Part shown: piece after piece, positions 33,002-43,802 of the stretch
Numbering within the stretch: the stretch's first letter is position 1
How the letters are laid out: every line of letters begins with the position of its first letter
Assembly (NCBI RefSeq): GCF_007097485.1
Contig: NZ_VKDE01000035.1
Location: 22,006-69,252 of the forward strand
DNA from: Carboxylicivirga sp. M1479
GTDB taxonomy: Bacteria; Bacteroidota; Bacteroidia; Bacteroidales; Marinilabiliaceae
Direction of reading: 5' to 3'
DNA: 47,247 nt
Notes under the pieces: generated by a model
Databases searched by the model: none
The model's input: only the letters and a program-made list of their open reading frames with translations
Told to the model about the DNA's origin: nothing
Position numbers and translations under genes: made by a program

Positions 33002-34240
33002 ATGACCATGACTAGATGCTGGTATCTTTGCCTTGTATTCTTTTACACAACAAGCCTGATGGCGCAAAATGTTAAGACAGGCATTGAAGTATTACAGGAG
33101 CATAATTTCTACTCACTAGAGGGCAAAAATGTTGGTTTAATTACGAATCCCACTGGCGTTAACCAGCAACTTAAGGCGACTATTGACATACTGGCCGAAG
33201 CTGCCAATGTTAAGCTAGTAGCACTCTATGGACCCGAACACGCCGTGAGAGGCGATTATTCCGCAGGAGATAAAGTTCAGTTCTTTAGCGACCCGAAAAC
33301 ACAACTGCCTGTTTACAGCCTTTACGGTAAGCACAAAAAGCCCAGTGCTGATATGCTTACCAATATAGATGTATTGGTCTATGATATTCAAGATATCGGA
33401 TCACGCTCTTACACTTACATCAGCACCCTAGGTTTAGCCATGGAAGCTGCAGCAGAAAATAACATTAAACTAGTGGTGCTCGATCGGCCAAATCCACTTG
33501 GCGGCCTTAAAATGGAGGGAATGATAACCGAATCAGGTTTCACTTCTTTCGTTAGTCAATTTCCCATACCCTACATACACGGTTTAACGGTTGGCGAATT
33601 AGCACTTTATTTAAATGGCGAACAACTATTAAGCAATGGTGTGCAATGCGATTTGGAGGTTGTGGCCATGGAAAACTGGAAACGAACGATGAACTTTGAA
33701 GACACTGGCCTACCATGGGTTCCGTCATCTCCACACATACCACGGGCTACTTCATCCTACTTCTATCCGGCAAGTGGCATTTTGGGGGAGTTGTACATTT
33801 TTAACATTGGCGTTGGCTACACTTTACCATTTGAGCTCTTTGCTACTGAATGGATCAATGCCGACAGTTTAGCTCATAACTTAAACAGCTTAAACTTAGC
33901 GGGCATTACCTTTCGACCAATACACTACAAACCCTATTACAGTACATCGAAAGGCAAGCTATTACACGGTGTGCAAGTACACATAAGCGACTACCAACAA
34001 GCTCAATTATCGTTGATTCAGTTTTACATATTGCAGGAGACCCATAAGTTGTGGCCCGAACACAACGTATTTGACATGTGCGAACCCTCGCGCATTAGCA
34101 TGTTTGATAAAGTTTGTGGAAGCGATAAAGTAAGAATAGCCTTTACCAAGCATTGGCTGGTTGGTGATATTATAGACTTGTGGACAAAAGACATTAACTC
34201 ATACAGGCAAAGGGCTGAGAAATACTTTCTTTACGATTAG
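33002..34240 (+). CDS. namZ: Exo-beta-N-acetylmuramidase NamZ (DUF1343)
   Basis: This 412-residue protein has a signal peptide (ending SLMAQ) and the DUF1343 fold. Visible parts are LEGKNVGLITNPTGVNQ, LYGPEHAVRGDYSAGD, VYSLYGKHKKPSADML, VLVYDIQDIGSRSYTYISTLGLAMEAA, DRPNPLGG, HGLTVGELALYLNGE and GLPWVPSSPHIP. In Bacillus and Tannerella this family (GH171) removes non-reducing terminal MurNAc from peptidoglycan fragments. It begins the salvage cluster at 33-45 kb. Start at 33002 or the next Met (33008). Confidence 0.92.
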   Translation: MTMTRCWYLCLVFFYTTSLMAQNVKTGIEVLQEHNFYSLEGKNVGLITNPTGVNQQLKATIDILAEAANVKLVALYGPEHAVRGDYSAGDKVQFFSDPKTQLPVYSLYGKHKKPSADMLTNIDVLVYDIQDIGSRSYTYISTLGLAMEAAAENNIKLVVLDRPNPLGGLKMEGMITESGFTSFVSQFPIPYIHGLTVGELALYLNGEQLLSNGVQCDLEVVAMENWKRTMNFEDTGLPWVPSSPHIPRATSSYFYPASGILGELYIFNIGVGYTLPFELFATEWINADSLAHNLNSLNLAGITFRPIHYKPYYSTSKGKLLHGVQVHISDYQQAQLSLIQFYILQETHKLWPEHNVFDMCEPSRISMFDKVCGSDKVRIAFTKHWLVGDIIDLWTKDINSYRQRAEKYFLYD

Positions 34241-34261
34241 ATGATTAAAAACTGATAAAAC

Positions 34262-34711
34262 ATGCAAATAAAAACACTCATCCTATTCGTTGCTTTAATT
34301 ACCCTTACTACATCCTGTGTTCAAAAAGAAAAGAATATGAAGTACTCATCGGCCATTACATTTTTATATTATAGGGACTTTGCCTACGGCATTGATTTTA
34401 TTGAGAATACCTTACAATTGGATTTAGTAATGGATCAAGGTTTTGCAAAAGTCTATCAAGTAAATGAAAAAGCTTTTTTAGGCATTGTACAAAAGAAAGA
34501 TAACGAAGCATCTGGCAGCACTCTATTCTCTTTAAGCACGGATAAGGTAGAAAAGGAGTATGCAAGAGTTAAGCAATTGGAAGTATTTAATTTATCAGAA
34601 ATAAAACACTTCGAATCCATTCCTCTTAAATCATTCTTCTTCGACGATGCCGAAGGACACAAATTTGAAATCCAGCAATTTTTAAAAGACGAAGATATTT
34701 TAAGATTTTAG
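34262..34711 (+). CDS. VOC-like lipoprotein
   Basis: This 149-residue protein has a lipoprotein signal (LILFVALITLTTSC, Cys19 in TTSCVQK). The mature part has the half-barrel pattern of the vicinal-oxygen-chelate fold: AITFLYYRDFAYGIDFIENTLQL, TLFSLSTDKVEKEYARVKQL and SFFFDDAEGHKFEIQQF. It may bind a metal or a small ligand outside the cytoplasmic membrane; the metal residues are not certain. It starts 21 bp after NamZ, so both form an operon, but no link to peptidoglycan is proven. Confidence 0.7.
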   Translation: MQIKTLILFVALITLTTSCVQKEKNMKYSSAITFLYYRDFAYGIDFIENTLQLDLVMDQGFAKVYQVNEKAFLGIVQKKDNEASGSTLFSLSTDKVEKEYARVKQLEVFNLSEIKHFESIPLKSFFFDDAEGHKFEIQQFLKDEDILRF

Positions 34712-34732
34712 TTCTCTTAAAACAATTACAAG

Positions 34733-36034
34733 CTAGTCCTCTTCTTTTTTCTTGATTCCAAAACTGGCATCCACCTTTATAAGCTTAACCATTATAAAGC
34801 TTGGAATGGTACACAATACCACCCAAATAAAGAAGTGCTGATAACCGATTAGCTCCTGGATCCACCCTGACACCATGCCAGGAAACATCATGCCGGCGGC
34901 CATTAATCCCGTACAAAACGCAAAGTGTGCCGTTTTATGCTCTCCCTCCGAAACATAGATTTGATAGAGCATAAATGCAGTAAAACCAAAGCCGTATCCA
35001 AACTGTTCAATGGCAACAGAAATGCTTACCAACAAAAAGGAATCGGGCAAAGCATAGGACAAATACACGTACACCAAATTGGGCAGATTAATGGCAATAA
35101 CCATTGGCCACAACCAATATTTCAAGCCATTTTTTGAAGCCAGCATGCCTCCAAGAATTCCGCCAATAGTGAGAAAAATAACGCCAATAGTTCCATAAAC
35201 AATACCTACCTGACTGGTACTTAAACCCAGCCCGCCAATATCTTTTGAGTCGAGCAAGAAGGGCGAGGCCATTTTTACCAATTGCGATTCGCCCAAGCGA
35301 TAAAACAACAACATTCCTAAAATTGTCCAAATATTCTTCTTCCTAAAAAAGGAAGTTACAGTCTGCCCAAATCCTTTCATTGCCTCACCCACACTGAGCA
35401 CCTCTCTATCCTTATCTTCATCGGGATGTGGCAGGGCATATTTATGGTAAAGTGCGAGCAATACAAATAAGCCAGTGATAATATAAAAGGTTAAGGACCA
35501 TGCTAAAGGAATACTGGGCTGATCGCTACCAAATAAGGGCATTTGCTCAAATTGACCAGCCAAAAACACCAACAGTCCTTGTCCGGCAATCATCGCCAAA
35601 CGGTAAAATGTACTGCGAATACCAACAAAATAAGCCTGTTGACTTTGATTTAATCCAAACATATAAAAACCATCAGCCGCAATATCGTGGGTTGCTGAAC
35701 TAAATGCCAAGAGCCATAAAAAAGCCAAAGATGACTGAAAGAAAAAGCTTGTAGGAATGGTAAAGGCAACACCTGCCAGACCTGCTCCAATCAACAATTG
35801 CATGCTCACAATCCACCAGCGCTTACTTTTTATGGTATCAACAATCGGGCTCCAAATGGGCTTAATCATCCAAGGCAGATATAACCACGATGTATACAAG
35901 GCAATATCAGTGTTGGAGATATCGAGCTTTTTATACATGATCACGGCCAGAGTCATGACTACCACATAAGGTATGCCCTCGGCAAAATATAAGCTGGGCA
36001 CCCAAGCCCATGGAGAGGTTTGTTTTTGTTTCAT
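34733..36034 (-). CDS. AmpG-like MFS permease (muropeptide or amino-sugar importer)
   Basis: This 433-residue protein has about 12 membrane segments in the major-facilitator pattern. The N-terminus SPWAWVPSLYFAEGIPYVVVMTLAVIMYKKL resembles AmpG (PAT family), as do YTSWLYLPWMIKPIWSPIVD, FSSATHDIAADGFYM and YGFGFTAFMLYQIYVSEGEHKTAHFA. AmpG imports GlcNAc-anhMurNAc peptides in Gram-negative bacteria. Here NamZ, amidase and sugar kinase genes nearby support import of released MurNAc or muropeptides. The gene is convergent with the VOC-like lipoprotein and separated from SpoIID by a 489-bp gap. Confidence 0.85.
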   Translation of the reverse strand: MKQKQTSPWAWVPSLYFAEGIPYVVVMTLAVIMYKKLDISNTDIALYTSWLYLPWMIKPIWSPIVDTIKSKRWWIVSMQLLIGAGLAGVAFTIPTSFFFQSSLAFLWLLAFSSATHDIAADGFYMFGLNQSQQAYFVGIRSTFYRLAMIAGQGLLVFLAGQFEQMPLFGSDQPSIPLAWSLTFYIITGLFVLLALYHKYALPHPDEDKDREVLSVGEAMKGFGQTVTSFFRKKNIWTILGMLLFYRLGESQLVKMASPFLLDSKDIGGLGLSTSQVGIVYGTIGVIFLTIGGILGGMLASKNGLKYWLWPMVIAINLPNLVYVYLSYALPDSFLLVSISVAIEQFGYGFGFTAFMLYQIYVSEGEHKTAHFAFCTGLMAAGMMFPGMVSGWIQELIGYQHFFIWVVLCTIPSFIMVKLIKVDASFGIKKKEED

Positions 36035-36167
36035 TTTTTAAAACTAGTATCAAGATTCATTTACAGAACATCAATGTTGTCCTAAATATTTTTATCAATT
36101 GGGCTATTCGCCCAAACCCAACTTACTTTTTTAGCTTGATCTAAAAAACTAAGGAAAAAAGATCAAG

Positions 36168-36296
36168 GCTACTTTTTAAATAACTTTCTTATTTATCTCA
36201 GCTCAAGTGCGGCCGAGTGATTTCCGAATCAAGTTCGGAACTTCTCGGTCTTACTAAAGCTTTCGAGAAAACTAAAGTTATTTAAAAGAGAGGCCA
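36168..36296. repeat. Nested inverted repeat, MITE-like
   Basis: TTTTAAATAACTTT (36174-36187) pairs perfectly with AAAGTTATTTAAAA (36274-36287), and the match continues with gaps into AAGGC/GCC outside. Inside are a second pair CCGAG (36213) / CTCGG (36244) and a third TTCCGAA-TCAAG-TTCGGAA (36222-36240). The layout is a long hairpin with about 125 bp total, the shape of a short non-coding mobile element or a folded RNA. No coding potential is seen. Confidence 0.55.
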
Positions 36297-36496
36297 TAAG
36301 GCATGATGCATAAAAGAACCCCAGTTTCTAATTAACACTAATAATATACTTAATTTCAATCAGTTCGATTCATATCAATAAAATCGCTTAGGACGCTATT
36401 GACAGAACCTATACAAACGCTATTTAATCAAAGTTCTGCGTATTTATAGCTTAATCATGATGGTTTCATATATTTTCATTTTATTACCACTACTTG

Positions 36497-36512
36497 TCCC
36501 GATTTGTCGGGA
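36497..36512. repeat. Small palindrome after the SpoIID gene
   Basis: TCCCGA and TCGGGA flank TTTG. No T-run follows on either strand, so it is REP-like rather than a terminator. Confidence 0.45.
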
Positions 36513-36523
36513 TGGAACTCGGG

Positions 36524-37852
36524 TTAATACTTTTGCTTTAATTCGGCCCCGCGAAAATAATGGTTTAAAATAGCATTATAATCGTAGCCCCTGGCTCCCA
36601 TAACAGCAGCGCCTATCTGACAAAGTCCAACGCCGTGCCCCCAGCCCGCTCCTCGCAAGATAAAAAATACCTTTCCCTGCTCTTCACTTTTCGTTATCAC
36701 AAAAGCAGAACTATAAAGGTGCGATTCAGACAAGGTCTTTCGAATTTCCAGCTCCTTACCGATCGTCAGAATCTTTTTGTCACCAACAATCTTTAGCTTA
36801 ATCAAGCGCCCGGAGTCACCACGTTCGATTGGTATTAAATCTTGAATGGTACCATAATCAACACCCGTTCGCTTGGCAACCAATTCACTCAGTTCGTTTT
36901 GGTCGTAACGCAGCTCCCAACGGTAAAAATCATTGGTCTCCTGGTCGTAATCGTTCAATACCTGCTTTAACACTTCCTTGTCATTGGTATTACAAAAAGC
37001 ATCAGGCTCACCATTGATCCATTCACGTGCACTACCCTCCTCTTTCAAGTTAAGTTGCAAAGAACTGGCATCATCAACAATAGATTGCAAGTAGGGATGT
37101 TTAACTGGCTCCCACACATTCTCAAACTTCTCAACCATGCCACCGCAACATTTTGAGAAACGCGCATCACAGATGGCATTGTTATACATCAACACTTCAC
37201 CCCTGGTAGCTGCAACGGCCTGCTCCACTTCTGGTGTATTGGCTTTAACCATGCCCTGGTAGCGCTGACAATGATCATCGGCACAAACATCGAAATGCGT
37301 ATGATCTTCGCGGTCGTACCACTTAATGTATTCATCCTCCGATTCAAATACAGTTTGATAATTACTGGCTTCAGCTACCAAAGACTTGCTCTTATCAATT
37401 TGCGCCAACAACCAGCTGCGCGAAATAACAGCGTGTGCTTTTAGTAATTCAATGGATGATGTGGCACTCATCTCCGAAGAAATGACACTCATCAGGTAAT
37501 CTTCGAGCGATAATATATTAATTGCATTAATAACACCATCGTTTAGCAAGAGCTGAAAACTACCCTTAAAAGATTGATCTTCCTGTCGCTCCCAATGAAA
37601 ATCAACTCCAATGGTTACCTTGTGAATGGTAAAGAAACTCTTCTCATCCAATGGTTTAAAACACAATCCACTACGTATATACACATCCTCACCATCATCC
37701 GCTTTAAATAAAAGCATTGATTGACCATGTGGGGTAACAGTATACTTCCCAGATAACTCAATACCTGAAGTATGCTGAAACTGACCGACTAAAGTCAGTT
37801 CAATTGAAGTATTGACCTGAATACCAACCTTTATTTCTGGAGTTTGATTCAT
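36524..37852 (-). CDS. SpoIID/LytB-domain protein
   Basis: This 442-residue protein has a SpoIID fold, a lytic transglycosylase that cuts peptidoglycan strands without stem peptides. ILSLEDYLMSVISSEMSATSSIELLKAHAVISRSWLL contains the catalytic Glu (SSEM). TRGEVLMYNNAICDARFSKCCGGMVE, PYLQSIVD and the end motif GAGWGHGVGLCQIGAAVMGARG are all typical. The N-terminus (MNQTPEIKVGIQVNTSIEL) has no signal peptide and no membrane segment, unlike sporulation SpoIID, so the enzyme may act in the cytoplasm on imported fragments. It lies in the salvage cluster, upstream of AmpG. Confidence 0.9.
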   Translation of the reverse strand: MNQTPEIKVGIQVNTSIELTLVGQFQHTSGIELSGKYTVTPHGQSMLLFKADDGEDVYIRSGLCFKPLDEKSFFTIHKVTIGVDFHWERQEDQSFKGSFQLLLNDGVINAINILSLEDYLMSVISSEMSATSSIELLKAHAVISRSWLLAQIDKSKSLVAEASNYQTVFESEDEYIKWYDREDHTHFDVCADDHCQRYQGMVKANTPEVEQAVAATRGEVLMYNNAICDARFSKCCGGMVEKFENVWEPVKHPYLQSIVDDASSLQLNLKEEGSAREWINGEPDAFCNTNDKEVLKQVLNDYDQETNDFYRWELRYDQNELSELVAKRTGVDYGTIQDLIPIERGDSGRLIKLKIVGDKKILTIGKELEIRKTLSESHLYSSAFVITKSEEQGKVFFILRGAGWGHGVGLCQIGAAVMGARGYDYNAILNHYFRGAELKQKY

Positions 37853-37903
37853 CTGTTAATATTTATTTTCTTTCATCTATTATTACACTTTACTCTGTTT
37901 GCT

Positions 37904-38134
37904 TTACAGACGACTCTGTTGGTCTTACAAACGCCTCTTCCTTTCTTACATATAAGGCTGACGCCTTTACAAACGATGCTGGCGACCTTACATAGGCCAC
38001 TGCCAGCGATACATACGCCTCTGGCGGTCTTACATACGCCTCTTCCGCTCTTACATAGAAGGCTGACGCCTTTACATACGACGCTGGCGACCTTACATAC
38101 CCATCTTCTCCTCTAACACACGCCTCTTCCTGTC
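37904..38134. repeat. 21-bp tandem array, 11 units with 105-bp higher-order repeat
   Basis: The array fills most of the 284-bp gap between the SpoIID and DUF4922 genes. The anchor TTACA (or close variants) recurs at 37904, 37925, 37946, 37967, 37988, 38009, 38030, 38051, 38072, 38093 and 38114, always 21 bp apart with no indel. The 16-bp cores repeat at every fifth unit: ACGCCTCTTCC in units 2, 7 and 11; AAGGCTGACGCCT in 3 and 8; ACGAYGCTGGCGACC in 4 and 9. In one minus frame it reads as seven-residue units (YVRSPAS, YVKASAF, YVRAEEA, YVRPPEA) and in the DUF4922 frame as CKVASVV-type units after two stop codons. No start codon precedes either frame. Units are contiguous, without CRISPR-like spacers. 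Confidence 0.9.
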
Positions 38135-38136
38135 AC

Positions 38137-39081
38137 TCATACACCATCAACTATTTCCTCAGCCAATAATGCACTATCGTGTTCACTCATACACACCTCA
38201 TCAAGTATGGCTGTCACATCACTGGCTGTTATCTTCTCAAAATCCTCGGCACGCGGCGTTATAAACACACCTCCCATATCCACCGAGGCAGGACTTAATA
38301 GTATTTGCTCATCTCCCTTTGCAAAATAACATTTAGGACGATGCAATACACGAGGAAACACATGAACCACATACTCGCCCGATTCGAAATAAGTCAATAC
38401 ATTGAGCATAGGCTCCAACTCATCCATCTGTTGTTCAAATAAAACCTTATGCAAATGATCGAACAAGCTTTTTATCGCAATTACATCACTCCCCTTAAAA
38501 CTGATTACCCCACGATGATAGTTTGACCAAGTATAAACCTCAATGCCTTTGTGATTAGCGATCAGCTTCGTAAACTTTTCTCTTTTAAAGTCATCTTCAA
38601 GAGGCAAAAAACCCTTATTACCTGCCTGAAAATGGAAATGATCAGGCGCCGAAGCACCACATTTTGGCCCATTGTAAAACAAGGTAAAATCATTAAGCTC
38701 CCGAGCTAAATCAAGCATGGAAGAAAAATAGGGCTCAATTATCTGCACAGTATGCTTTTGATGCGGAATGGTCAAATGCTGCTGAAATATGGGAAAGGGA
38801 TTTATCAAGATGGAATAATTACCAAACTCAACACCCTCCTGCTCCGCTGGACGATTTTTAGCGCATAAAAAACACGAACGCTCCTGAATGGACTGAGCAT
38901 CTACCTTGGCCGAAGACGAACGAATGCGTTCAGGATTGAATTGAACTTTCACTTCTGCACCTCCAGGTAAAGTCAATGATTTCGTCCTTACCTTTTGCAA
39001 GCCAGCGTAATTATTAGCCGCCAGCTCCCATTTCTGAAGCTGACTATTAATAAGTTGTTTAGTTTGATGCAATATGCTCAT
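38137..39081 (-). CDS. DUF4922 protein, GalT/HIT-like nucleotidyltransferase fold (predicted)
   Basis: This 314-residue protein has ILINPFPIFQQHLTIPHQKHT (about residues 91-111) and FYNGPKCGASAPDHFHFQ (about 135-152). The second block is very like the active site of galactose-1-phosphate uridylyltransferase and the HIT family (a H-x-H-x-Q motif, His148, His150, Gln152). CFLCAKNRP with Cys70 and Cys73 may bind zinc together with later residues. The fold suggests transfer of a nucleoside phosphate between sugar phosphates; the true substrate is not known. It lies between SpoIID and the GT2 gene on the same strand, within the salvage cluster. Confidence 0.85.
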   Translation of the reverse strand: MSILHQTKQLINSQLQKWELAANNYAGLQKVRTKSLTLPGGAEVKVQFNPERIRSSSAKVDAQSIQERSCFLCAKNRPAEQEGVEFGNYSILINPFPIFQQHLTIPHQKHTVQIIEPYFSSMLDLARELNDFTLFYNGPKCGASAPDHFHFQAGNKGFLPLEDDFKREKFTKLIANHKGIEVYTWSNYHRGVISFKGSDVIAIKSLFDHLHKVLFEQQMDELEPMLNVLTYFESGEYVVHVFPRVLHRPKCYFAKGDEQILLSPASVDMGGVFITPRAEDFEKITASDVTAILDEVCMSEHDSALLAEEIVDGV

Positions 39082-39184
39082 TAATATTTGCTTTGGTTTT
39101 AGTCAAACTATTATTTAGTCTCTACAAGAAAACTCAGATATTTCTCAAGTGCTTGAATGGAAAAGTTAAATTTCAAGGCTTGGT

Positions 39185-39234
39185 CTTTTTGAAAATCAAG
39201 GAGTTTACGTTTGTAAATGACTGTTTTCAAAAAG
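39185..39234. repeat. Nested inverted repeat
   Basis: CTTTTTGAAAA (39185-39195) and TTTTCAAAAAG (39224-39234) are perfect complements. Inside, TTTAC and GTAAA flank GTTT at about 39204-39217. It lies in the 233-bp gap between the GT2 and DUF4922 genes. It could be an RNA hairpin or a small palindromic element. No T-run follows on the minus strand, so a simple terminator is doubtful. Confidence 0.5.
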
Positions 39235-39314
39235 GGCGTAACGAAGAATTATAAATCACGAATTCCTCTAAAAGCATAACAAGACATGAGTAAATTGGAC
39301 TTTTCGGGCAAGCA

Positions 39315-40778
39315 CTATTTAGTCGCTTTTGCCACCAATTGCTGCCGTGCTTTTAGCTCCATAGTGCGTATTTTATCCTTGTAAAAATTATGAGCATTCA
39401 TTTTGTTAATATCTAATGATGCATCAGAGTTGTCATCCCAACGACGACACAAATACAAAGGATTATAAATGCGACCGATTTGATATTCGCGACTGATGTT
39501 TAAGCCCAGAGCATAATCCTCTCCATAACTGGTATTGGGTACTTTTACTTCGCGCAACACTGGTGTATAAAACGCTCGTGGAGCACCCAAGCCATTAATT
39601 CGCAAAGCATTATTACGTCCATTCTCTGGCGTCCACTCCTTGTGATCAATTAATCCAGGCGGAATCTCTTCCAAATCGAAGTTTACCATTTGATAGCTTC
39701 CCACCACCATGGCACAGTTCTGCTCGTAAAAAGCATTCACAACTTGGTCGATTACGGTTTCATCAATGTACAAGTCATCGCTATCCAATTGAATGGCAAA
39801 CTGACCGCATTGAGCGTGCGCCACCCCCACATTCCAACATCCACCAATACCCAAATCCTGACGATCAGGGATCACATGGATCAAACGCTCATCCTTATAC
39901 GATTGAATTATTTCAGTGGTTCTGTCGCTGGAATGGTTATCGACAATTATCAGGTTAAAAGAAAATTGTGTTTTCTGTTTTAATACCGACTCAATGGCAT
40001 CACCGATGGTTTTTTCACGATTACGAACCGGAATGATCACCGATGCCTCCACCGGAAACTTCATCTTATCAAAAGCAATCGCTTTAAATTCAGGTTTAAG
40101 AAAGCCACCAATTACTTTTAAGTGAGCAGTACACGCCTCTTCCATTTCAATTTGTCGGTCTCGGTTACGAGGATCGACATAATCAAACATTTTTTCGCCC
40201 GATTTTCGGGTATCCAGCTCCACTTCGGTGTACAACAATTCGGGCAGATGCAGGAGCTCTTTTTGTTGCGATACACGCAAACGCAAGTCATACAAGGCCG
40301 CCATTTTATAGTTAACATCCATGGCCTCAACCGCCTCTTTGATTGTTTTAGTAGGAAATAACAATAAAGAGCCAAAGTTAAAATCATCGCGTAAACTACC
40401 ACTCTGATAATCAATCAGCGGATGGGCTTTCATAGTGCATTCTTTCTTCTCATAATAATCGGCGTACACCATTCCAGCATTGGTATCGGCACAACACTTC
40501 ATCATGCGTTCAATGGCATTCATGCCAATGCTTAACTGCATGCCTTTCGTGTATAGAACCACATAATCGCCCTCAATGCCAGGTATAAGTTGCTTCCATG
40601 TTGCAGTTGCATCAAGGCCACCCTCAGCCACTACCACTTTAGCCCCCTCAACCAATACCTGTTCTTTGGCTATGACTAAAATATTAACTTGAGAATAAGC
40701 CTCTTGAAATGCATCTATCGTTGGCCTCATCTCTACCTCATCGGCATAAGGCAAAATGCATGTTATCTGTTCAACCAT
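39315..40778 (-). CDS. Family 2 glycosyltransferase with two GT-A-like halves
   Basis: This 487-residue protein has no membrane segment. The N-terminal half (about 1-230) has GT-A-like parts (EQITCILPYADEVEMRPTIDAF, GDYVVLYTKGMQL) but its DxD-type motif is poor. The C-terminal half (from about residue 244) is a normal GT2: ASVIIPVRNREKTIGDAIESVLKQ, LIIVDNHSSDRTTEII, QLDSDDLYID (DSDD metal motif) and SYGEDYALGLNI with RRWDDNSD at the end. It lies 6 bp after the amidase gene stop on the same strand, so they are co-transcribed. The sugar donor and acceptor are unknown. Confidence 0.88.
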   Translation of the reverse strand: MVEQITCILPYADEVEMRPTIDAFQEAYSQVNILVIAKEQVLVEGAKVVVAEGGLDATATWKQLIPGIEGDYVVLYTKGMQLSIGMNAIERMMKCCADTNAGMVYADYYEKKECTMKAHPLIDYQSGSLRDDFNFGSLLLFPTKTIKEAVEAMDVNYKMAALYDLRLRVSQQKELLHLPELLYTEVELDTRKSGEKMFDYVDPRNRDRQIEMEEACTAHLKVIGGFLKPEFKAIAFDKMKFPVEASVIIPVRNREKTIGDAIESVLKQKTQFSFNLIIVDNHSSDRTTEIIQSYKDERLIHVIPDRQDLGIGGCWNVGVAHAQCGQFAIQLDSDDLYIDETVIDQVVNAFYEQNCAMVVGSYQMVNFDLEEIPPGLIDHKEWTPENGRNNALRINGLGAPRAFYTPVLREVKVPNTSYGEDYALGLNISREYQIGRIYNPLYLCRRWDDNSDASLDINKMNAHNFYKDKIRTMELKARQQLVAKATK

Positions 40779-40784
40779 GGTATC

Positions 40785-43775
40785 TTATTTTTTCTTTTTG
40801 TCGTTCATAAAATAATCCAGAATCTGCTTCACCAAGGCATCTCGCTGGCTATTGGCTGTTATTGTTTCTATGGGAAATCCCAGCACCATTGCCTTGTAAG
40901 CACCCGAATAAAGCGTAGCTGCACTAGCATTATTTTCGGCATAACGCAAGGCAGTTATTGTCTCTTTACCAACAGGCTCAATAGCGTCAGGAGCTTCCAC
41001 CGTATAAATATGCGGCAGGTAAGTAGTATTAAATCGCCATCTTCCCTTTAGCATGGTGGCCTGATCATTGCAAACAAGCTCTCCCAATTTAGAGGCATGA
41101 TTACTGCGCCACTTAAAGTGTAAAACATCGGCAGCAAAATCTTTGGCTTGCTTATCTTTCGTCAGATGAATATCGCTTCCCACATACGCCCCACTCAATA
41201 GCACATGCTGCCCATTAGCTGTAACTTGCTTTAGCTTATTCATTAATTCATCGGTATATAGCTTGTACTTCTCTGTCTGTTTATTAGGCGATACGCTTGT
41301 TTTTTCCTCTCCCGCAATAATGTCTATCACTGGAAACAAAGATGCATCGTACTGCTCTTGCTCAAAAGCCTCATCACTCACCGACACAAAGCTATAGCCG
41401 GCCCTTAAAATAGATTGTCCATGGATGATGGTATTATCAAAGCTATTCCCTTTAATGAATTGCCCCTCCGCATCGGCATAACTAGCACCCCAACCTGGGC
41501 TATCGTCATCTAACCAAGGCGAATCCCTATCGAAATCGTACTGATACCCAGTAAAGGCGTAATCATATTTATCTGGCACCCCTTGATCGTTCCACCAGGC
41601 AACACCAGCAAAGTTTCCCTCATCAACAAATGCAGGAGCACTAACCCTGTCAAAGGCATTTACCACCAACACCGTTTCTGCGCGTCGTCCAGCAAATCCT
41701 AGCGACAGCACTTCGCTCGGAAAGCTTTCTCCACCCTCATTTATGGCCGTAACTTTATAGCTGATTATTTCTCCTTTTTTAAGCTTTGGCAACTGATAAG
41801 TATTTCCTTTTACAACAGTTCCATTATCAAAACCCTTTGTTCCCTTGCGCGCATATACTTTGTAATATTGTGGTTTAGCCGTTACTTCCAGGCTATCTTC
41901 TACAGCCTGCCAGGTTAATTTATAAGCCTTTTTATCTGGCACAATGGCCAAATGATCAACAGGCAGAGGCTGCACCACATAGTCGCGCCCATCCTGAAGT
42001 GCTAAAAAGCGAAGCATGCCCTTGTAAATAGATCTACATACATCAAAACGAAACTGAGGGTCGAGACCATAGCGCATATCCGCCAGGTTCTGGTGCGATA
42101 AAAGCTCCAAAAGCATGGTGGGAACATTGGGGCGCCAAGCCTCAGAATACTGCTTATCCCACATTGCCCGACGAGTCCACTTCGAATTATACAAGGTACG
42201 AATATCATCCACCAACTGCGTTTGTATCAAATCCGTTAAATCACGACTGACCAACTTACTTTGTCCATTGGAAAAATATCCACTATCGAGCTCAGTACTA
42301 TAAATACCAAGCGTTCCTATTACCGAGTCATTTGGTGTTACGCCAGCATCGGTATGAAATGCAAAAGCCAAATCAACAGGCAAACCAAGCCCATTTACTT
42401 CCGCTCCCTCAGTTGGTTTCATCAGGTAGTTCAACCACTCGCCCCTACTCTGGTAATCATCCTTATAGTCACTTCGCTCCTTGTTCAGGCTATACACCAG
42501 CGTATCGGGCATACCAGCATACTGCATCCAATAGCGTGCCGCCTCCATGTAACGAGGCCGCTGCGAAGTCTTCCAACCAAAGTGATTCGTTTCGACTTTT
42601 GCTTTCTCATTTGAGCTACCTATAGCACTTACCTCCTCTTGGGTAGGATGCCGAGCCACGTGCCCCATACCTCCACCAATCTTAAGCGCGTCAACTGACA
42701 CCACTCCATTCGCTTCAAGCTCTATCAACACCGATTGCTCTTGTACAAAATGGAACTTACCCAAATAAGCCCATGTGCCGCCACCCATTGTTTGATCAAC
42801 GATAAAAGTGGATGAACCGCCACTGTGATGAATTGTGTATTTTACCTCTTTGGCATTATCACTTGCGTGCAGATAAGAAATATAAACCGCGTATTCGCCA
42901 TCGTGAGGGACTCTAGCTCTGTAGTTGGCGACAAGGCCATTGGCATTTGTTACTTTTAAAGATGAGCCTTTTACAAATGGATTATCCCCAGTAAACAACG
43001 TGTCGACAGCTTTAAACCCTATCTGCTCATCAAACCGGATGCCTTTCTCCAGTTTTAAACTTGCTCCTTTGGACGCAATGTCATTATCTATAATTATTTC
43101 ATTTGATTGAAAACAGCGCTCCTGCGGCATATATAAATAAGCACCAGCATTCTCGAGCATTGGCACCAGGTAGGGCATCACATAAGCCATGGTAAAAATA
43201 TCCTCCACCGTACCGTACAAGCGGGCTCGCTGCCACTCCCAACGATCAAGTGTTGATTCGTAATACCAACCATGACTGTGCCAAAGGGCAATATGATTCG
43301 CACTTAAGCCCTTGGAAAACCACTCCTGCTCGCTATTCGTGATGTATTTCGAATGCTTGCTACGAGCAGTAAAACGAGAACTATCGATCTGTGATCGGTA
43401 GTAATTGGGAATTAACTGTTCCAGCTCGTATCCATTAGCATACACTTTTACATTATAACTTTCCAATTTGTTTTGATGAAGCATTTCAAGACTTTGCTTA
43501 AAAACACTCACGTTATCCTCTCTCCAAGGGGTGTACGATAATGGTTTACTAAAGAAATAGTTTATCTCAGCCTCATTCACATCAATACTAAAAGAGTCAA
43601 GCACACATTCGCCCAAATGCCCCCGCTCCACTACAGGACTTTGCCAAGCTTTTAATTGCTCTTGGTGTTGCCGATGTATATCTGAAACATTCAACTGTGC
43701 ATGCGTGGACACCAGCAAACAACTCATAAGCACCACTAATATTGAAACTCTGGAAAGCGCATTGTTTTTATTCAT
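40785..43775 (-). CDS. Secreted N-acetylmuramoyl-L-alanine amidase-like protein with golvesin-type domain
   Basis: ATG at 43775 (MNKNNALSRVSILVVLMSCLLVSTHAQ) gives a signal peptide and 996 residues. The Amidase_3-like fold is interrupted: IALWHSHGWYYES (about 160) resembles the first zinc His region, a golvesin/Xly-type beta domain (YRARVPHDGEYAVYISYLH ... VSVDALKIGGG, about 285-370) follows, then LAFAFHTDAGVT (His about 473) and MLLELLSHQN (Glu about 557). A fibronectin III-like part (TAKPQYYKVYARKG ... YKVTAINEGGESFPS, about 640-695) is followed by a 250-residue C-terminal domain. It should cut the MurNAc-L-Ala bond in the periplasm. It is first in its operon with the GT2 gene. Confidence 0.85.
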   Translation of the reverse strand: MNKNNALSRVSILVVLMSCLLVSTHAQLNVSDIHRQHQEQLKAWQSPVVERGHLGECVLDSFSIDVNEAEINYFFSKPLSYTPWREDNVSVFKQSLEMLHQNKLESYNVKVYANGYELEQLIPNYYRSQIDSSRFTARSKHSKYITNSEQEWFSKGLSANHIALWHSHGWYYESTLDRWEWQRARLYGTVEDIFTMAYVMPYLVPMLENAGAYLYMPQERCFQSNEIIIDNDIASKGASLKLEKGIRFDEQIGFKAVDTLFTGDNPFVKGSSLKVTNANGLVANYRARVPHDGEYAVYISYLHASDNAKEVKYTIHHSGGSSTFIVDQTMGGGTWAYLGKFHFVQEQSVLIELEANGVVSVDALKIGGGMGHVARHPTQEEVSAIGSSNEKAKVETNHFGWKTSQRPRYMEAARYWMQYAGMPDTLVYSLNKERSDYKDDYQSRGEWLNYLMKPTEGAEVNGLGLPVDLAFAFHTDAGVTPNDSVIGTLGIYSTELDSGYFSNGQSKLVSRDLTDLIQTQLVDDIRTLYNSKWTRRAMWDKQYSEAWRPNVPTMLLELLSHQNLADMRYGLDPQFRFDVCRSIYKGMLRFLALQDGRDYVVQPLPVDHLAIVPDKKAYKLTWQAVEDSLEVTAKPQYYKVYARKGTKGFDNGTVVKGNTYQLPKLKKGEIISYKVTAINEGGESFPSEVLSLGFAGRRAETVLVVNAFDRVSAPAFVDEGNFAGVAWWNDQGVPDKYDYAFTGYQYDFDRDSPWLDDDSPGWGASYADAEGQFIKGNSFDNTIIHGQSILRAGYSFVSVSDEAFEQEQYDASLFPVIDIIAGEEKTSVSPNKQTEKYKLYTDELMNKLKQVTANGQHVLLSGAYVGSDIHLTKDKQAKDFAADVLHFKWRSNHASKLGELVCNDQATMLKGRWRFNTTYLPHIYTVEAPDAIEPVGKETITALRYAENNASAATLYSGAYKAMVLGFPIETITANSQRDALVKQILDYFMNDKKKK

Positions 43776-43802
43776 AAAAGGACTTAAGCACATTTAACAA
43801 AT

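What the first reader, a model, noticed from the sequence alone, without database searches (positions are those of the whole stretch)
37904..38134. Perfectly phased 21-bp tandem array with a 105-bp super-repeat between two cell-wall genes
Eleven units follow each other at exactly 21 bp without an indel, although the cores have diverged. Units 1-5 and 6-10 match pairwise, most clearly 2 with 7, 3 with 8 and 4 with 9. Diverged copies that keep perfect phase imply either selection on a seven-codon period or a copying process that always adds whole units. On the minus strand one frame is open and gives conservative changes between super-repeats (YVKASAF/FVKASAL, YVRAEEA/YVRKEEA), but it has no start codon. 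The DUF4922 frame also runs through the array after two stop codons (CKVASVV/CKVASIV). It is not a CRISPR array, because units are contiguous and there are no spacers.
Basis: seen in the sequence. Interest (0 to 1): 0.75.

Follow-up and report, generated by a model that had tools for sequence, protein, structure and literature searches.

The report
Bacteroidota 21-bp helix-phased DNA arrays
The repeat is one of many DNA arrays, seen in several groups of one large bacterial phylum, whose units are exactly two turns of the double helix long and which often sit just upstream of a gene for a protein of unknown function, suggesting an undescribed system in which a protein reads the array.

Summary
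The array is real: 12 units at window 37883-38134, every spacing 21 bp, with a 105-bp (5-unit) super-repeat. It is not coding: in 210 units of the same motif (15 arrays, 7 genomes, genus Carboxylicivirga) stops in all six frames are about as many as column composition predicts. Six of the 15 arrays lie 217-357 bp upstream of a gene for a 224-aa protein without a significant Pfam, NCBIfam, PADLOC or PHROGs match. Among relatives of that protein in Bacteroidota, 53 of 66 distinct genes examined have an upstream array of period 21, with lineage-specific motifs, against 5 such loci in 607 kb of sampled DNA. Motif and protein diverge together. Conservation along the unit has a 10.5-bp rhythm (z 10.3) and no codon rhythm (z -2.7); flanking DNA shows the reverse. 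The units are therefore probably binding sites read as duplex DNA from one helix face, two contact patches per unit. The window copy is an orphan: no relative was found beside it, and none of 75% identity or more in its genome. Binding is inferred; the biological output is unknown.

The parts
37883..38134 (+). Array of 12 contiguous 21-bp units, skeleton TTACATA-N5-CT; oriented + because gene-linked arrays with this motif point this way toward their gene
   Evidence: orientation
37904..38008 (+). First copy of the 105-bp (5-unit) super-repeat, units 2-6
38009..38113 (+). Second copy of the 105-bp super-repeat, units 7-11
36524..37852 (-). Flanking gene, SpoIID domain protein; its start codon is 30 bp from the array. 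Context: the same gene flanks the arrays of G006, G009 and G011
38137..39081 (-). Flanking gene, DUF4922 protein; its stop codon is 2 bp from the last unit. Context only

Best explanation
The array is one copy of a two-part module found in Bacteroidota: (1) direct repeats (5-31 in the gene-linked arrays counted) whose units are exactly 21 bp, two turns of B-DNA, and (2) often, a short way downstream (50-400 bp in 44 of 53 cases), a gene for a protein of about 215 aa, mostly helix in a low-confidence model. SHOWN: the array and its phase; the gene linkage; lineage-specific motifs that diverge with the protein; conservation of the unit with a 10.5-bp rhythm and no codon rhythm; orphan arrays, the window's among them, that on average match the skeleton as well as gene-linked ones. 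The output is a guess: control of its own promoter (a region that holds a lone TTTACATAA or variant in the Carboxylicivirga clade) or a chromosomal nucleoprotein anchor. The window copy would be an orphan of this kind.
For: Linkage: 53 of 66 distinct relatives have an upstream period-21 array, against 5 such loci in 607 kb of sampled DNA and 4 of 29 DUF4922 control loci, all four at the window's own locus in other genomes. Phase: 751 of 770 spacings are exactly 21 in the gene-linked arrays (routine favours 21), and the open scan of periods 8-60 puts 21 or 42 first in 27 of 30 loci and 24 of 30. Helix: 10.5-bp harmonic z 10.3 over 42 arrays, p 0.0005 against a null that keeps clustering; z 7.9, p 0.0015 with one array per motif cluster (38 arrays); 49 stretches of flanking DNA cut into 21-mers give z -1.2 at 10.5 bp and +5.1 at 3 bp. 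Constraint: 34 of 42 arrays have unevenly conserved columns beyond uniform decay. Co-divergence: same-strand motif similarity 0.78 for 20 pairs of at least 70% identity, 0.27 below 25%; opposite strand 0.27-0.31 throughout. Array and gene can part: glyA locus (G003 with gene, G006 without) and hexosaminidase locus (G006, G010 with gene, G000 without).
Against: No binding, expression or structure was measured. The proteins are mostly acidic (median pI 5.6; 6 of 60 above 8). The structure model is poor (mean pLDDT 43). Arrays in G000, G009 and G011 keep their skeleton (window 8.33, L136 8.00, L135 7.29, G009 8.08, G011 8.27 of 9; gene-linked mean 7.95) although no relative of 75% identity or more was found in these genomes, so the linked protein may not be what maintains them; one orphan, L139, is weaker (6.60). 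L155 is 69-71% identical to the TTACATA clade yet has another motif. The 10.5-bp signal in the 11 other arrays (orphan, second-family, downstream, gene-fragment) is not significant against the stricter null (p 0.11). Of the 13 genes without an upstream array, three have it downstream and six have none or a weak one; four are cut by a contig end. Sharing of motif details among arrays of one genome was inconclusive (p 0.059). At the window's locus 10 of 16 genomes examined have no array. The loci counted were not drawn at random.
Confidence: 0.6

Rival explanations
1. The array is transcribed and works as a repetitive RNA bound or cut by the downstream protein, as in type III toxin-antitoxin loci (array of short RNA repeats before a toxin gene).
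For: Similar layout: tandem array, then a gap, then a ~200-aa gene. The minus strand of the window array folds somewhat better than its shuffles (z -2.17, 4 of 200 as good).
Against: No pair covariation pointing to an RNA fold: the strongest couplings are mostly adjacent or close columns. Plus strand z -1.34. Terminator-like sites between array and gene are few (5 of 46; 2.2 expected). RNA would not explain a 10.5-bp rhythm of conservation.
Confidence: 0.15
2. A selfish or neutral minisatellite cassette: array and gene copy together by recombination, with no function for the host.
For: Two cassettes in G006 are 98% identical in protein but 84-88% to their counterparts at the same loci in G010, so cassettes are copied or converted within a genome; unit number changes between close species; matches per genome vary, up to 9 in G361; the window's locus has an array in only 5 of 16 genomes.
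Against: Skeleton columns are far more conserved than the rest in diverged units; orphan arrays are on average not decayed; no homologue found in plasmid, phage or viral collections with the few proteins tried.
Confidence: 0.15
3. The array encodes, or is the remnant of, a heptad-repeat peptide.
For: 21 is a multiple of 3, so some frames stay nearly open by accident; two frames of the window array have 1 stop in 84 codons.
Against: Stops in all six frames at about the expected numbers over 210 units; 3-bp harmonic below its null.
Confidence: 0.02
4. The units are sites for a general nucleoid or transcription factor unrelated to the linked gene; the gene is linked because it is regulated by, or tolerated next to, such arrays.
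For: Orphan arrays persist where no close relative of the protein was found; the proteins are mostly acidic.
Against: 53 of 66 linkage with one protein family and motif co-divergence with it; a single general factor would not explain dozens of unlike motifs (38 clusters below 0.5 similarity), several per genome.
Confidence: 0.2

Closest known systems
Iteron arrays of plasmid replicons and parC-type partition sites (recalled, not looked up here)
   Same: Direct repeats of about 11-22 bp, phased to the DNA helix, next to the gene of the protein that binds them.
   Different: Here the arrays examined are in chromosomal surroundings, diverged within one array, 21 bp with dozens of motifs; the protein has no significant family match; no plasmid match for the one protein tried; binding not shown.
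Type III toxin-antitoxin loci (ToxIN and kin; recalled)
   Same: Tandem repeats directly upstream of a ~200-aa gene.
   Different: No RNA covariation signal and few terminator-like sites between array and gene; protein predicted helical, at low confidence.
BrickBuilt, a 23-nt minisatellite in a MITE of Porphyromonas gingivalis (PMC4596501; abstract and section list seen)
   Same: Bacteroidota, intergenic, contiguous short tandem repeats without spacers, many copies per genome.
   Different: 23-nt unit, inverted-repeat ends, one repeat family in one species, no linked protein mentioned in the abstract.
Intergenic TAACTGA heptamer direct repeats (PMC4679880; abstract and Bacteroidetes section read)
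   Same: Intergenic direct repeats, arrays of up to 43 copies in several Bacteroidetes and Cyanobacteria, mechanism unknown.
   Different: 7-nt unit of one fixed sequence, in one species mostly just upstream of start codons; no linked protein family in the parts read.
CRISPR arrays
   Same: Short conserved stretch alternating with variable stretch.
   Different: 7-bp conserved stretch, 14-bp semi-variable core with its own consensus, 5-unit super-repeat, no cas gene noticed in the flanking genes listed.

Membership tests
The 21-bp array-gene module defined here | Contiguous direct repeats of exactly 21 bp | tested here: met
   Window array, 12 units, all spacings 21
The 21-bp array-gene module defined here | Family gene within about 1 kb downstream of the array | tested here: not met
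   None beside the window array; it is classed as an orphan array of the TTACATA clade by motif (similarity 0.84 to each of four gene-linked arrays, median 0.34)
Iteron or parC-like array | Helix-phased direct repeats | tested here: met
   21-bp period and 10.5-bp conservation harmonic across the array class
Iteron or parC-like array | Adjacent gene encodes a Rep or Par family protein | tested here: not met
   No significant Pfam match in 3 members or NCBIfam match in 2
Iteron or parC-like array | Cognate protein binds the repeats | not testable with these tools
   Needs a binding assay
Type III toxin-antitoxin | Terminator between repeat array and toxin gene | tested here: not met
   5 of 46 gaps have a terminator-like site, 2.2 expected (simple home-made scan)
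Type III toxin-antitoxin | Repeats fold as structured RNA | tested here: not met
   No helix-like covariation in 205 distinct units; no Rfam match in 37500-38500 at E up to 1
Type III toxin-antitoxin | ToxN, CptN or TenpN family protein | tested here: not met
   No significant Pfam or NCBIfam match; PADLOC best E 0.0049, to ZorA, in 1 of 25 members
CRISPR array | Unrelated spacers between repeats, cas genes or leader | tested here: not met
   Contiguous units with a super-repeat; neighbours are SpoIID, DUF4922, MFS, NamZ and glycosyltransferase genes
Protein-coding heptad repeat | One frame depleted of stops | tested here: not met
   Stops about as expected in six frames; the largest relative shortfall is 23 against 28.1, sd 3.1; 3-bp harmonic below null
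TAL effector-like DNA-binding repeat protein | Repeat-by-repeat similarity | tested here: not met
   Profile hit E 6e-7 is a sum of weak repeats; no stretch passes on its own, best 5.7 bits

The most novel reading that the evidence does not exclude
Bacteroidota carry many chromosomal nucleoprotein arrays, each written as 21-bp units for its own fast-evolving helical protein that lines up along the DNA one protein per two helical turns. The recognised motif may be rewritten in place: at the window's locus arrays stand in five genomes of two genera with three different motifs but the same 21-bp phase, so a whole array might change specificity together, as in centromere-like co-evolution. Orphan arrays would be further docking sites served in trans.
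Probability: 0.25. Interest if true: 0.92.

Novelty: categorically new. Interest (0 to 1): 0.82.

Why it matters
A two-helical-turn ruler kept in distant lineages of a phylum, with freely changing sequence and a linked protein family of unknown function, points to an undescribed DNA-protein system. It would give a role to a family of hypothetical proteins present in several copies per genome (9 matches in one sampled genome) and offers a natural series of protein-motif pairs from which DNA recognition by an uncharacterised helical protein could be worked out. It is directly testable with one purified protein and one array.

Tried and rejected
Coding in the array: rejected by stop counts and by the 3-bp harmonic. 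RNA structure: no Rfam match, weak folding scores, no helix-like covariation. TALE similarity of the linked protein: an artefact of summing many weak repeats. A general palindrome operator before the gene: a 16-20 bp palindrome around TAATGAGTACTCATTA is in 4 genes, all of the TTACATA clade, but only 5 of 53 genes have any palindrome of 12 bp or more. Promoter (TAnnTTTG) and terminator scans around arrays: close to shuffled numbers. A conserved third gene: none; the largest cluster of flanking open frames (4) is translated arrays, the rest are pairs or triples. Mobile carriers: no match in plasmids for L151, in phages for L206, or in viral contigs for L151, L206 and L185. Motif sharing within a genome: inconclusive, p 0.059. 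Internal duplication of the 224-aa protein: not supported (hhalign 2.5%), although the second protein family does look duplicated (87.5%) and its C half may be related to that of the first (60%). Structure prediction: too poor to compare folds, so no fold search was run. Literature: seven searches of the open-access library found nothing on such arrays; subscription papers and preprints are not covered.

Rows dropped and selection: 8 of 81 loci had no family match of 120 aa or more and repeated proteins were merged, leaving 66 genes. The 81 loci were 30 of the 70 matches (best per genome first), 30 of the 43, 20 asked for by place (most because they hold relatives) and 1 from the random sample, so they are not a random set. 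In some searches close copies and arrays under 9 units were left out (42 used). The spacing counts come from a chaining routine that penalises other spacings and so overstate regularity; the open scans of periods 8-60 do not. In the sample several tiny contigs gave meaningless scores (probably masked sequence) and were ignored. Of the 7 second-family loci one, L271, is the array that led to the family, and two share one array.

Full report
WHAT IS IN THE WINDOW. The array lies in the 284-bp gap between two minus-strand genes, SpoIID (36524-37852) and DUF4922 (38137-39081). In phase it has 12 units of 21 bp, 37883-38134, with no indel, and units 2-6 and 7-11 form a 105-bp super-repeat (TRF 88% matches; core identity 0.66 at offset 5 against 0.37 on average at the other offsets tried). 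Period 21 gives z 16.1, the only periodicity above z 8 in the window for periods 8-60.

SAME-MOTIF ARRAYS IN THE GENUS. A pattern search found a second array in the same genome, on contig C43. A three-unit sequence model searched in 71 genomes of the family found matches in 10; seven hold clear arrays, all in the window's genus, and three (G008, G022, G031) only weak hits. Contig lengths and record titles point to the genus Carboxylicivirga. After fetching flanks I count 15 arrays of at least 8 units, 210 units in all, 10-19 per array: G000 three, G003 four, G006 three, G010 two, G004, G009 and G011 one each. Of the units, 205 of 210 are distinct, but columns 1-7 and 13-14 (TTACATA and CT) are kept in most. 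Six of 195 spacings are not a multiple of 21, against 1116 base mismatches to a degenerate consensus.

NOT CODING, NO RNA FOLD. In the six frames the numbers of stops in the 210 units, observed and expected from column composition, are 25/24.1, 97/104.5, 23/28.1 (plus) and 238/221.3, 40/42.3, 28/29.6 (minus); no frame is clearly depleted. The strongest column couplings are mostly adjacent or close columns, so no helix is indicated. No Rfam family matches.

A LINKED PROTEIN. Six of the 15 arrays have a 224-aa open frame 217-357 bp downstream in unit direction, 72-98% identical to each other, in several different surroundings. It has no significant match in Pfam (3 members), NCBIfam, PADLOC (best E 0.0049) or PHROGs (best 0.0069), and its model, all helix, has a mean pLDDT of only 43. 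Two loci show that array and gene can part: at glyA, G003 has array and gene but G006 only an array; near the hexosaminidase gene, G006 and G010 have both but G000 only an array. One further array (L138) ends 448 bp from a contig end and keeps a block normally found before the gene, so its gene may simply be cut off.

THE LINK HOLDS FURTHER OUT. Relatives of the protein occur in 28 of 71 genomes of the family and, with a profile, in 15 of 296 genomes drawn from the phylum (some of these matches are short or weak). An open scan of periods 8-60 put 21 or 42 first at z above 7 in 27 of 30 family-search loci (exceptions L156, L161, L171) and in 24 of 30 phylum-search loci. The stricter count is: 53 of 66 distinct genes have an upstream array (peak at least 2.85), 5-31 units, median 15, gap -13 to 1094 bp, median 213, 44 of 53 within 50-400 bp. 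Of the 13 others, four are cut by a contig end, three have the array downstream, six have none or a weak one. Background: 5 period-21 loci in 607 kb sampled from two genomes, of which two lie upstream of a family or second-family gene. A second protein family (L224, 215 aa), possibly related, also has arrays: in 7 of 7 loci 21 or 42 is the top period, z 7.3-17.6, but one of these led to the family and two share an array.

MOTIF FOLLOWS PROTEIN. Consensus motifs differ by lineage: TTACATA...CTG, TCAGGTA...CTG, CAAGTATCA, and many others. Same-strand motif similarity is 0.78 for 20 pairs of at least 70% identity, 0.37-0.38 at 35-70%, 0.29 at 25-35% and 0.27 below; opposite-strand similarity stays at 0.27-0.31. 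Common descent of array and gene explains part of this. The drop can be abrupt: L155, 69-71% identical to the TTACATA proteins, has an unrelated motif.

READ AS DOUBLE HELIX. Over 42 gene-linked arrays the conservation of the 21 columns has its strongest mean harmonic at 10.5 bp: 2.61 against 1.05 expected, z 10.3; p 0.0005 against a null that keeps local clustering; the 3-bp harmonic is low, z -2.7; 22 of the 42 arrays are individually strongest at 10.5 bp and 12 at 21 bp. With one array per motif cluster (38, including some orphan or second-family arrays) the result stands (z 7.9, p 0.0015; 3-bp z -2.4). Flanking DNA from 49 of the same loci cut into 21-mers shows no 10.5-bp signal (z -1.2) and a strong 3-bp one (z 5.1), as expected for genes. 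The 11 orphan, second-family, downstream or gene-fragment arrays alone point the same way but not significantly under the strict null (p 0.11). In 34 of 42 arrays columns are unevenly conserved beyond uniform decay. I read this as contact by protein on one face, two patches per unit.

THE WINDOW'S LOCUS. I looked at the stretch between SpoIID and DUF4922 in 16 genomes. Five have a 21-bp array there: G000, G009 and G011 with TTACATA, G006 with ATTGCTT-type units, and G022, another genus, with GACTTGT-type units (its SpoIID side is off the contig). Ten have none (G001-G005, G007, G008, G010, G012, G015), and G013 is cut off. So arrays come and go at this spot, and different motifs there may mean rewriting in place or separate gains. 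The G006 orphan resembles the gene-linked array of G009 C39 (0.72). The G009 and G011 arrays align over 10 unit pairs with core identity 0.75 and skeleton identity 0.88, although neither genome shows a relative of 75% identity or more. So orphan arrays seem to stay under constraint; what reads them there is open.

MECHANISM. Shown: anatomy, phase, linkage, co-divergence, helical rhythm. Inferred: sequence-specific binding, one reader per two turns, cooperative line-up, whole-unit gain and loss. Guessed: control of the gene's own promoter, where the six Carboxylicivirga cassettes hold a lone TTTACATAA (exact in three of six, variants in three) in a conserved block, or a role in nucleoid organisation. 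I put 0.6 on the duplex-DNA reading by the linked protein or a complex with it, and much less on any particular output.

NOVELTY. Nothing like it turned up in the families searched or in seven searches of the open-access library; the nearest printed repeats differ in unit length and sequence and, in the parts I saw, have no linked protein (PMC4679880: abstract and one section read; PMC4596501: abstract and section list seen). It works like an iteron or partition array, but membership fails on the protein and binding is untested. 'Categorically new' is therefore a judgement that further reading or one binding experiment could lower.

Noticed in passing
L142 and L143 (G006 C77 and C127): Two cassettes in one genome are 98% identical in protein and share three exact units, but each is only 84-88% identical to its counterpart at the same locus in G010: copying or conversion between cassettes within a genome.
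   Followed up: partly
L224:3346-3993 (G000 C80) and relatives L271-L277: Second helical-looking protein family, apparently with two repeated halves, also next to 21-bp arrays; three further relatives in the window's own genome.
   Followed up: partly
L211:10930-11181 (G000 C2): Orphan 21-bp array with a CCATGGGGATAA-type motif unlike any gene-linked array examined (best similarity 0.39).
   Followed up: partly
L254 and L251 (G006 C148 and C15): Two pieces of a family gene at contig ends, perhaps one gene split by the assembly; the array beside the first piece resembles that of the G000 C87 gene (0.77), to which the second piece is 75% identical.
   Followed up: no
L095 (Clostridium sp. KNHs205), minus strand from 2049 (reverse-complement coordinates): Six nearly identical 21-bp units beginning TTACATA in an unrelated phylum; probably unrelated, context not examined.
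   Followed up: no
window 33002-43793: Cluster of NamZ, an MFS transporter, SpoIID, DUF4922, a family 2 glycosyltransferase and a Golvesin_C protein, largely conserved in G009 and G011; suggests a cell-wall related locus.
   Followed up: no
L182 (G129 C16): A relative of the protein with a repeat whose best periods are 41 and 20 rather than 21: a possible drifted array.
   Followed up: no
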